Shown here: positions 32,644 to 34,898 of the stretch, in pieces
Layout of the letters: each line of letters begins with the position of its first letter
How positions within the stretch are numbered: position 1 is the first letter of the stretch
Source: a bacterium
GTDB lineage: Bacteria; Myxococcota_A; Bradymonadia; UBA7976; UBA1532
DNA: 64,000 nt
Assembly: GCA_030427205.1 (NCBI GenBank)
Contig: JAUHXC010000017.1
Coordinates: forward strand, 62,001 to 126,000
Direction: 5' to 3'
Translations under genes and position numbers: made by a program
The notes under the pieces: model-generated
The model's database searches: none
Told to the model about the DNA's origin: nothing
Seen by the model: only the letters and a program-made list of their open reading frames with translations

Positions 32644-33334
32644 GAGCGACCCCCGCCGGCATCTCGCCTGTCGGGAAACAGCTCGCGAGGGACCGGCGAG
32701 CGATCTGGATCGGTGGAGATCGCCTCGGGAGCGACCCCCGGCAGTATCTCGCCTGTCGAGAAACAGCTCGCGAGGGGCCGGCGGGCGATCTGGATCGGTC
32801 GAGATCGCCTCGGGAGCGACCCCCGGCAGTATCTCGCTTGGCGAGAAACAGCTCGCGAGGGACCGGCGAGCGATCTGGATCGGTGGAGATCGCCTCGGGA
32901 GCGACCCCCGGCAGTATCTCGCTTGTCGAGAAACAGCTCGCGAGGGACCGGCGAGCGATCTGGATCGGTGGAGATCGCCTCGGGAGCGACCCCCGGCAGT
33001 ATCTCGCTTGTCGAGAAACAGCTCGCGAGGGACCGGCGAGCGATCTGGATCGGTGGAGATCGCCTCGGGAGCGACCCCCGGCAGTATCTCGCCCGTCGGG
33101 AAACAGCTCGCGAGGGACGGGCGAGCGATCTCGACTTCCCGAGACCGCCTCGGGAGCGACCCCCGGCAGTATCTCGCCCGTCGGGAAACAGCTCGCGAGG
33201 GACGGGCGAGCGATCTCGACTTCCCGAGACCGCCTCGGGAGCGACCCCCGGCAGTATCTCGCTTGTCGAGAAACAGCTCGCGAGGGACCGGCGAGCGATC
33301 TCGACTTCCCGAGACCGCCTCGGGAGCAACTCTG
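32644..33334. repeat. Array of about eight 85-bp tandem repeats
   Basis: The anchor word GATCT recurs at 32702, 32787, 32872, 32957, 33042, 33127, 33212 and 33297, exactly 85 bp apart, with units 85-99 percent alike. Each unit carries the palindrome CTCGCGAG and a TCTCG/CGAGA hairpin. The three last units also hold the hairpin TCCCGAG-accgc-CTCGGGA. Because 85 is not a multiple of three, every strand stays open in shifting frames, so the long reading frames here are artefacts. There are no spacers, so this is not CRISPR. No gene is seen from 32607 to 33669. Confidence 0.9.
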
Positions 33335-33345
33335 GTGGTTTCGAG

Positions 33346-33669: not shown

Positions 33670-34898
33670 ATGGTGAGCCATACCCACGACGCCGTCTTCA
33701 AGCGCATCTTCGGTCGGCCCGAGCTGGCGGCCGACCTGATGCGCCGCCGCCTGCCGCCCGAGCTGATCGCGGCGCTCGACCTCGATCGCTGCGAGCCGGT
33801 CACCGCCGAGTATCTCGATCGCAAGCTGCGCAACCGACGGGCCGATCTGGATGCCCTCGTCGAAATTGCCAATACGGCTGCGACGGCCGATCTCGCCGAT
33901 GCCGGCGTTGCTCGCTGGCGCGAGCGGGCTACGCCCCGTGGGGCTCGCGGGCTTGCCCGTCCTCGACGTGCCCCTGGCACGCCTTCGTCGTCGCGCCGGG
34001 CTACGCCCGAGCCTACGCCCCGTGGGGCTCGCGGGCTTGGCTCCCTCGACGACCTCGGCTCGCCGCCCCCGTATCGTCACTTCCGCCGCGGACATCGGTC
34101 TTCCGCGTGCCGCTCGTCGACCGCGAGGGCGAGGCCTTCGTCTTCATCCTCGTCGAGCATCAGTCGACGCCTGATCCGCTCATGGCCGTCCGGGTGTTGA
34201 TCTACGCCGTCGGGACGTCGAGCCGCTTCATCGAGCGCCACCGGGCGAAGACGGGCCGCGCGCCGCGGCGGCTGCCGGCGGCGATCCCGCTGGTGGTGCA
34301 TCAGGGCCGCCGGCCGTGGTCGGGCCCCCGCTCGCTGGCCGAGGCCTTCGACCTGTCGCCGGCGCTGCAGGCGGTGCTCGGCGAACACCTGCCGCGGCTG
34401 ACGCTGCTCATCGACGATCTGGCCGTGCCTGACGGCGAGCGCGGCGGGCGCACACAGCGGGCGCTGACGGCGGCGGCCCTGCTGGCGATGCGCGCCGCCC
34501 GAACACCCGCGACAGAAGGGCTCGCCGAGCGACCTGCGGCGCTGATCTCGGCGTCGCTCGACGAGCCGGGGCGAGCGGAGGTGGTCGCGACGGTTGTCGA
34601 GTATTTGTACACTCAGGTCGATCAATTCTCGCCGTCGCGGTTGCTCGAGACGATCGACGCGACCGACGCAGAGACCAAGGAGGTGCTGATGACCGTCGCC
34701 GATCGCTTGCGCGCCGAGGGCCGAGTCGAGGGGCGGGCCGACGCGATCCTGGAGCTCATCCGGCAGCGCCTCGGCGAGCCGAGCGCGTCGCTGGCCGCCC
34801 GGGTCGTCGCCGACGCGGGCGAGGGCACGGGCCCCTGGTTCGAGCGGATCCTCGCCGCGTCCGATCTCGCCGATCTCGAAGCCCGCCTCCCGGACTGA
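33670..34898 (+). pseudogene. Rpn/YhgA-type PD-(D/E)XK nuclease gene, split by an insertion
   Basis: This is a recombination-promoting nuclease (transposase_31-like) gene. The N-terminal part reads in one frame: HTHDAVFKRIFGRPELAADL, then LDRKLRNRRADL up to 33850. The rest reads in another frame from 34098: VFRVPLVDREGEAFVFILVE, then HQSTPDPLMAVRVL, LIYAVGTSSRF and a typical C-terminal helical region ending in RLPD. Removing 33851-34098 (248 bp) joins the halves as RRADL-VFRVPLVDREG, restoring the family pattern including the catalytic D and the E-x-Q. The break falls between these catalytic residues, so the product should be inactive. Rpn proteins are DNA endonucleases spread by transfer. 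Confidence 0.8.
33851..34095. mobile_element. 245-bp MITE-like insertion with imperfect terminal inverted repeats
   Basis: The insert that splits the Rpn gene has ends that match in inverted orientation at about 24 of 34 positions (left end 33851 onward ATGCCCTCGTCGAAATTGCC; right end, reverse strand from 34095, ATGTCCGCGGCGGAAGTGAC). Three flanking bases (TGG on the left, CGG on the right) may be a small target duplication. Inside are two direct 27-bp copies (33929-33955 and 34013-34039) centred on the palindrome GCCCCGTGGGGC. No transposase gene is present, so movement would need one in trans. Confidence 0.6.

What the first reader, a model, noticed from the sequence alone, without database searches (positions are those of the whole stretch)
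33851..34095. 245-bp MITE-like element with 34-bp imperfect terminal inverted repeats
The two ends match at about 24 of 34 positions in inverted orientation, and mismatches in the first 19 bases fall every third base. The unit has no gene but carries two direct copies of a 27-bp palindrome-centred sequence. The period-3 pattern is odd for a non-coding repeat and may mean the ends derive from a coding sequence.
Basis: seen in the sequence. Interest (0 to 1): 0.52.

Follow-up and report, generated by a model that had tools for sequence, protein, structure and literature searches.

The report
Mobile palindrome with conserved central hairpin
A short non-coding piece of mobile DNA has jumped into and broken a nuclease gene; it belongs to a large, little-noticed group of elements whose ends differ widely while a small hairpin in the middle stays the same across distantly related bacteria.

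Summary
The element is real. Window 33851-34095 has 34-bp ends matching at 24/34, mismatches at positions 4,7,10,13,16,19, and two identical 27-bp repeats. It interrupts an Rpn/YhgA-like nuclease gene (PF04754). An intact paralog in the same genome shows the empty site; a second paralog carries the same insertion. Thirteen copies with these ends lie in the genome. So it is a dispersed MITE-like element, not a one-off.

The larger finding lies at its centre. A 66-nt core holding a hairpin was found in 80 fetched loci; 71 have matching inverted ends, of eight different types. In 76 distinct sequences, 96.0% of pair cells are paired and 67 cells changed on both sides (0/500 shuffles). 38 of 282 genomes of the phylum have the core. 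A 2009 Geobacter paper noted 24 'predicted short RNA elements' with nearly the same central palindrome (PMC2700814, file legend only).

Most likely the elements move by their ends through IS5-like transposases, while the hairpin is kept by selection. No autonomous partner was found in the same genome.

The parts
33670..34898 (+). Rpn/YhgA-like nuclease gene (PF04754) broken by the element; 5' part 33670-33850, 3' part about 34095-34898 in another frame
   Evidence: Pfam PF04754 profile positions 2-57 in the 5' part and 64-186 in the 3' part; intact 420-aa paralog in L128 6083-7345; alignment of three paralogs
33851..34095 (+). MITE-like element, family A, long form (245 bp)
   Evidence: core matched by model R1 at G000:C4:95943-96006 = window 33943-34006
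33847..33850 (+). left flank CTGG (target sequence as in the empty paralog)
34096..34098 (+). right flank CGG: CTGG target copy lacking one base
33851..33884 (+). left terminal inverted repeat (34 bp, imperfect)
34062..34095 (-). right terminal inverted repeat (34 bp, imperfect)
33929..33955 (+). optional palindromic module, copy 1 (27 bp), 5' of the core hairpin
   Evidence: absent from compact copies such as L004
34013..34039 (+). optional palindromic module, copy 2 (27 bp), 3' of the core hairpin
   Evidence: absent from the filled paralog in contig C52
33964..33987 (+). conserved central hairpin: CGA/TCG and CGTGC/GCACG helices (33964-33966 with 33985-33987; 33967-33971 with 33977-33981)
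   Evidence: covarying pairs in alignments A1, A2 and A3

Best explanation
This is a non-autonomous, MITE-like mobile element that was cut and pasted into a CTGG site of an Rpn nuclease gene and destroyed that gene copy. It belongs to a superfamily of elements (about 160 bp in the compact form, up to about 250 bp with extra palindromic modules) built as: terminal inverted repeat, inner arm, conserved core with a hairpin, inner arm, terminal inverted repeat. The ends are most likely recognised in trans by DDE transposases of the IS5 kind that prefer CTAG-like targets (inferred). The ends have diverged into many types while the core hairpin was kept by compensatory changes (shown). I think the hairpin acts as folded single-stranded DNA, as a cis-acting signal for the element's own propagation (inferred). 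Shown: copies, empty site, gene disruption, shared core, covariation, many end types. Inferred: the transposase family, the DNA rather than RNA level, the function.
For: Thirteen family-A copies in the genome. Intact paralog with a clean junction and a second paralog with the same insertion. PF04754 split by the element. 71 of 80 fetched core loci carry one known end type at both ends, 5 at one end, 4 at none. Covariation: A1 4 of 8 pairs with double changes; A2 96.0% paired, 67 double-changed cells, 0/500 shuffles, slid controls 10-58%; A3, mainly other families and classes, 96.9% paired, 40 double-changed cells, 0/500. Outside the genus 12 of 21 core loci have an 18-nt inverted repeat with at least 15 matches, against 1.75% in swapped flanks. 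Helix 2 holds 0 G-U of 362 standard pairs in A2 and 3 of 134 in A3 (added up), which speaks for pairing in DNA. An IS5-like transposase (PF05598, PF01609, PF13751) in relative G003 has CTAGCAGGTTGCTGAAAAAC ends, like the family-G elements of G006.
Against: No autonomous copy with family-A ends (own genome) or family-C ends (seven unpaired ends checked) was found, though these are fragmented assemblies. The IS in G003 lies in a genome without detected core elements. Flanks are equal in only 10 of 26 elements (shuffle mean 6.0, P = 0.017), so a simple 4-bp duplication does not explain the flanks. Family-C elements of 58-76 bp without the core exist, so a pair of ends can lie in the genome without it. 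RNA and DNA folding of the whole element is no better than shuffles (z -1.06 and -0.55). Core loci were found by the core, which biases core-versus-end comparisons.
Confidence: 0.6

Rival explanations
1. The hairpin core works as RNA: elements are transcribed from neighbouring genes and the hairpin ends, protects or processes the transcript, which makes insertions tolerable downstream of genes.
For: By a GC3 heuristic, of 47 loci with both flanks called, 14 lie between convergent genes, 31 between tandem genes and 2 between divergent genes (76 loci examined). The Geobacter authors called 24 sequences with nearly the same central palindrome predicted short RNA elements (PMC2700814, supplementary-file legend).
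Against: No clear strand preference in tandem contexts (18 sense, 13 antisense). Almost no G-U pairs in helix 2. No T-run terminator was seen beside the core. No Rfam match at the core in 18 loci. The scarcity between divergent genes could simply be loss of promoter-breaking insertions.
Confidence: 0.22
2. The core has no function: all elements descend from one ancestral transposon, and the centre looks conserved only because loci were collected by their core.
For: Loci were selected with models of the core, so end similarity had no chance to be favoured; ends are close to random between types (0.433 against 0.399 shuffled).
Against: Compensatory double changes across families and classes (0/500 shuffles) are not expected from selection of hits on sequence alone; the stem sequence differs between types while pairing is kept.
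Confidence: 0.1
3. The period-3 mismatches mean that the ends come from, or are still read as, coding sequence, as in translated palindromic elements.
For: In the outward frame both family-A ends read a peptide like HFRRGHL with mostly synonymous differences, also in two solitary end-like sequences (L067, L074; sequences; translated by eye); pooled test P = 0.043.
Against: No period 3 over the whole element (A 0.775, E 0.887); the insertion shifts the frame of the gene it sits in; the same peptide on both strands at both ends is hard to select.
Confidence: 0.05
4. A one-off rearrangement inside the nuclease gene.
Against: Thirteen copies in the genome, relatives in others.
Confidence: 0.01

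Closest known systems
Prokaryotic MITEs (review PMC10969869, passages read; e.g. Chunjie of Geobacter uraniireducens, 178-235 bp, as described there)
   Same: Short, no transposase gene, terminal inverted repeats, dispersed copies, size variants, one copy interrupting a gene or operon.
   Different: The review's passages describe terminal repeats and direct repeats as the conserved structural features; here the centre is conserved between types and the ends are not. Whether Chunjie carries this core could not be checked (the primary paper is not held).
24 predicted short RNA elements of Geobacter metallireducens (PMC2700814, legend of Additional file 4)
   Same: Multicopy, intergenic, central palindrome GRCGTAGCGCTGCTACGCC, nearly the same as the core hairpin in L276 (GACGTAGCCCTGCTACGCC); also reported in G. 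sulfurreducens, G. uraniireducens and Desulfotalea psychrophila.
   Different: The legend names no terminal repeats, no mobility and no interrupted gene; the alignment itself was not available.
IS5-type insertion sequences (PF05598 plus PF01609; L161 and L174 in relative G003)
   Same: CTAG-like flanks and CTAGCAGG.TG.TGAAA ends, like the family-G elements in G006.
   Different: Codes for a transposase; no core hairpin seen; not found with matching ends in the window's genome. That this protein type is called IS5-like is recalled, not from a call.
Rickettsia palindromic elements (from the review PMC10969869, passage read)
   Same: About 150 bp palindromic elements found inside genes.
   Different: Those encode a peptide and can fuse in frame; this one breaks the frame and shows no coding signal over its length.

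Membership tests
MITE | Short (under 500 bp) without a transposase gene | tested here: met
   245 bp; compact relatives about 160 bp; no gene inside
MITE | Terminal inverted repeats shared by the copies | tested here: met
   71 of 80 core loci with one end type at both ends
MITE | Several dispersed copies and an empty site | tested here: met
   Thirteen family-A copies; empty paralog
MITE | Target-site duplication | tested here: inconclusive
   CTGG / C-GG here; flanks equal in 10 of 26 elements, P = 0.017 against shuffled pairs
MITE | Autonomous element with matching ends in the same genome | tested here: inconclusive
   None found for family A or C; assemblies of 100 and 180 contigs, in which insertion sequences are often missing, so absence is weak
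IS5-mobilised MITE | IS5-type transposase flanked by the same ends | tested here: inconclusive
   Only for family-G-like ends, in relative G003; one DDE_Tnp_1 hit in the own genome, a protein with PF13701 and other ends
Rickettsia palindromic element type | Translated in frame, coding signal across the element | tested here: not met
REP / REPIN mobilised by RAYT | Y1 (HUH) transposase partner and 5' tetranucleotide-hairpin units | not tested
   No search with a Y1 transposase model was made
Geobacter predicted short RNA element family | Central palindrome GRCGTAGCGCTGCTACGCC and full-length alignment | not testable with these tools
Known Rfam RNA family | Match to a covariance model | tested here: not met
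   0 matches in 11 loci; 1 match below the gathering score, outside the core, in 7 loci

The most novel reading that the evidence does not exclude
A superfamily of mobile elements spread over a phylum, and probably beyond, is defined by its centre and not by its ends: a hairpin kept by compensatory change at the DNA level is the element's essential signal, while the ends are exchanged or remade to follow whichever IS5-like transposase is available.
Probability: 0.3. Interest if true: 0.78.

Novelty: new variant of a known kind. Interest (0 to 1): 0.56.

Why it matters
MITEs are thought to need only their ends. A group in which the centre outlives the ends, with a hairpin maintained by compensatory changes across families and classes, suggests an unknown cis-acting role that can be tested directly. 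It also gives one search model that unites elements so far seen, if at all, as unrelated repeats, possibly including the 'predicted short RNA elements' of Geobacter.

Tried and rejected
Coding origin of the ends: period-3 tests on families A, C, E and on pooled ends; rejected for the element as a whole. Solitary family-A-like ends L067 and L074 as ends of an autonomous element: no inverted partner within the 16 kb and 14 kb stretches. Both lie just upstream of an open reading frame; an outward promoter is possible but not tested. DDE_Tnp_1 and DUF772 transposases found by Pfam search (L122-L125, L161-L165): none carries any of the typed end motifs within its locus at the threshold used; the right end of L161 was found by eye. 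Seven unpaired family-C ends in G001: no convincing transposase homology nearby (best E 0.59). Plasmid search with a G029 element: no match. Viral contigs: a loose pattern gave 120 stretches, of which I searched the 80 listed (0 with the core at E up to 0.1); tighter patterns gave 0, 1 and 0; the single locus L417 was not examined. Plasmid and phage searches with a core query were mostly chance; two stretches score with model R2: L413, a human faecal contig labelled bacteriophage (43.6 bits), and L414, a Novosphingobium plasmid (33.7 bits). The Klebsiella and Methylobacterium stretches did not score. Literature: eight searches listed no paper that, by title or abstract start, unites such elements by a central hairpin; most subscription papers are not held.

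Rows left out: one search listed 32, 36 and 26 hits in G000, G001 and G005; I fetched 31, 33 and 16 stretches (80 in all). One search was given 78 of these 80 (L213 and L264 left out) plus 8 others. orientation used 76 of 80 (stretches under 860 bases left out); its end test used 21 of 23 loci (two at contig ends). One search left L042 out of the family-A counts. In one search the window element itself was left out of the count, A_L003 was entered by hand, and L002 was not entered.

Full report
Observation. The features described are present at the given coordinates: a 245-bp unit with 34-bp ends matching at 24 positions, mismatches at 4, 7, 10, 13, 16 and 19, and two identical 27-bp repeats. 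The unit lies inside a gene. The bases before it (33670-33849) match Pfam PF04754 (YhgA-like; the name Rpn nuclease is recalled) at profile positions 2-57, and those after it match positions 64-186 in another frame.

Empty site. The genome holds a paralog of this gene in contig C52 (position 42422) in which the flanks are directly joined (GATCTGGTCTTCC); its frame is open (420 aa). A second paralog in C52 (40662) carries the element at the same place with the same right flank and lacks the second 27-bp module. Gene identities between the three are 0.90-0.91 and the two elements are 97% identical over 212 compared positions. So 248 bases were gained at a CTGG site; the right copy of the target lacks one base. 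The insertion presumably predates a duplication of the gene.

Family. Thirteen copies with the same ends lie in the genome (L001-L007, L014, L020, L021, L022, L027, L042). Most are compact, about 162 bp plus flanks. Flanking tetramers are CTAG or a few bases away from it. They are identical on both sides in 10 of 26 elements (families A, C and E; shuffle mean 6.0, P = 0.017). CTAG occurs only 4 times in the window against 154 expected from base composition. The unequal flanks remain unexplained.

Shared centre. Searches with the centre found elements with other ends but the same centre. I built a covariance model from 26 cores (A1; R1). In the order it found hits in 6 of 16 genomes: 32, 36, 26, 8, 3 and 3. 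Of 80 stretches fetched (31 of 32, 33 of 36 and 16 of 26 hits in G000, G001 and G005), 71 carry one of eight end types (A-F, I, J) at both ends, 5 at one end and 4 at none; two of these four (L194, L195) are diverged family A by eye. Types G (G006) and H (G005) were seen in further loci. In the class 11 of 57 genomes, and in the phylum 38 of 282 genomes (model R2), have hits. Among these outside loci 12 of 21 have an 18-nt inverted repeat with at least 15 matches around the core, against 1.75% when flanks are swapped. New end types appear, several with CTAG (L269, L276, L283).

Hairpin. In alignment A2 (76 distinct sequences) 96.0% of the pair cells are paired, 5 of 8 pairs show changes on both sides, 67 cells are double changes, and no shuffle of 500 reaches the covariation score; slid structures pair 10-58%. 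A3, mainly other families and classes, gives 96.9%, 6 of 8 pairs and 40 cells; of its 35 rows eight are weak matches (E 0.12-0.69), which were not removed. Both alignments were fitted to the model, which leans towards the structure. Helix 2 holds no G-U pair among 362 standard pairs in A2 and 3 among 134 in A3 (added up). I read this as a hint of pairing in DNA rather than RNA; the sequences are related, so it is not a test. Whole-element folding is not better than shuffles.

Ends against centre. For 19 end types, with one locus each, end similarity between types is near that of shuffled ends (0.433 against 0.399), while the two halves of the core reach 0.62 and 0.55 against 0.44 shuffled. The loci were collected by their core, so this comparison is biased in favour of the core; the covariation is the stronger argument.

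How it moves. In relative G003 a 357-aa transposase with PF05598, PF01609 and PF13751 lies between ends CTAGCAGGTTGCTGAAAAAC (L174) and CTAACAGGTTGCTGAAGAAC (read from L161). The two ends come from two contigs and may belong to different copies. Family-G core elements in G006 have CTAGCAGGSTGTTGAAA ends. That makes IS5-like transposases the likely movers. No such partner was found for families A or C in the genus; insertion sequences are often missing from fragmented assemblies.

Location. By a GC3 heuristic, 47 of 76 loci have both flanks called: 14 convergent, 31 tandem, 2 divergent. Elements are thus rarely kept between divergent genes. In tandem contexts the core is sense in 18 and antisense in 13, so a strand-specific RNA role is not indicated.

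Known work. The legend of Additional file 4 of the Geobacter metallireducens genome paper (PMC2700814, passages read) describes 24 intergenic predicted short RNA elements with a central palindrome GRCGTAGCGCTGCTACGCC, also seen in three other genomes. This is nearly the core hairpin of L276. Its alignment was not available. A review of prokaryotic MITEs (PMC10969869, passages read) does not mention an internal hairpin or central conservation in the passages seen. The eight literature searches listed no paper that unites such elements. From memory, not from any call, similar repeats occur in several other phyla. Two records outside the phylum-level search score with R2: a human faecal contig and a Novosphingobium plasmid.

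Period 3. Over family A (9 sequences) substitutions fall evenly on the three phases (P = 0.775), likewise in E (P = 0.887); C shows a weak excess (P = 0.035); the pooled first 24 end positions give P = 0.043, chosen after the fact. A coding origin is therefore not supported, although the outermost bases remain odd.

Verdict. An ordinary MITE insertion by itself, but a member of a wide group with an unusual conservation pattern.

Noticed in passing
window 33000-33345: Tandem repeats of roughly 90-100 bp lie just upstream of the broken nuclease gene (seen by eye).
   Followed up: no
window, whole: CTAG occurs 4 times in 64 kb against 154 expected from base composition, while many of these elements are flanked by CTAG.
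   Followed up: partly
L126 8299 (G000:C35) and L127 7024 (G000:C97:99023): Two solitary sequences like one end of the element lie just upstream of minus-strand open reading frames; possibly old ends or a promoter-like sequence.
   Followed up: partly
G000:C100:5148-5205; G001:C71:17768-17826, C84:26083-26151, C163:6842-6917 (L439, L436, L438, L440): Family-C ends only 58-76 bp apart without the core, each with its own breakpoints, as if the centre had been deleted.
   Followed up: partly
G003 L167, L171 and G002 L170: Another MITE-like repeat with AGCAGG..G.TGAAAAAG ends and a different interior without the core.
   Followed up: no
L198 (G000:C81): A family-C and a family-E element lie side by side, sharing the tetramer CTCG at their junction.
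   Followed up: no
L017 (G000:C49): A family-B element sits between two tRNA-like sequences (seen by eye, not scanned).
   Followed up: no
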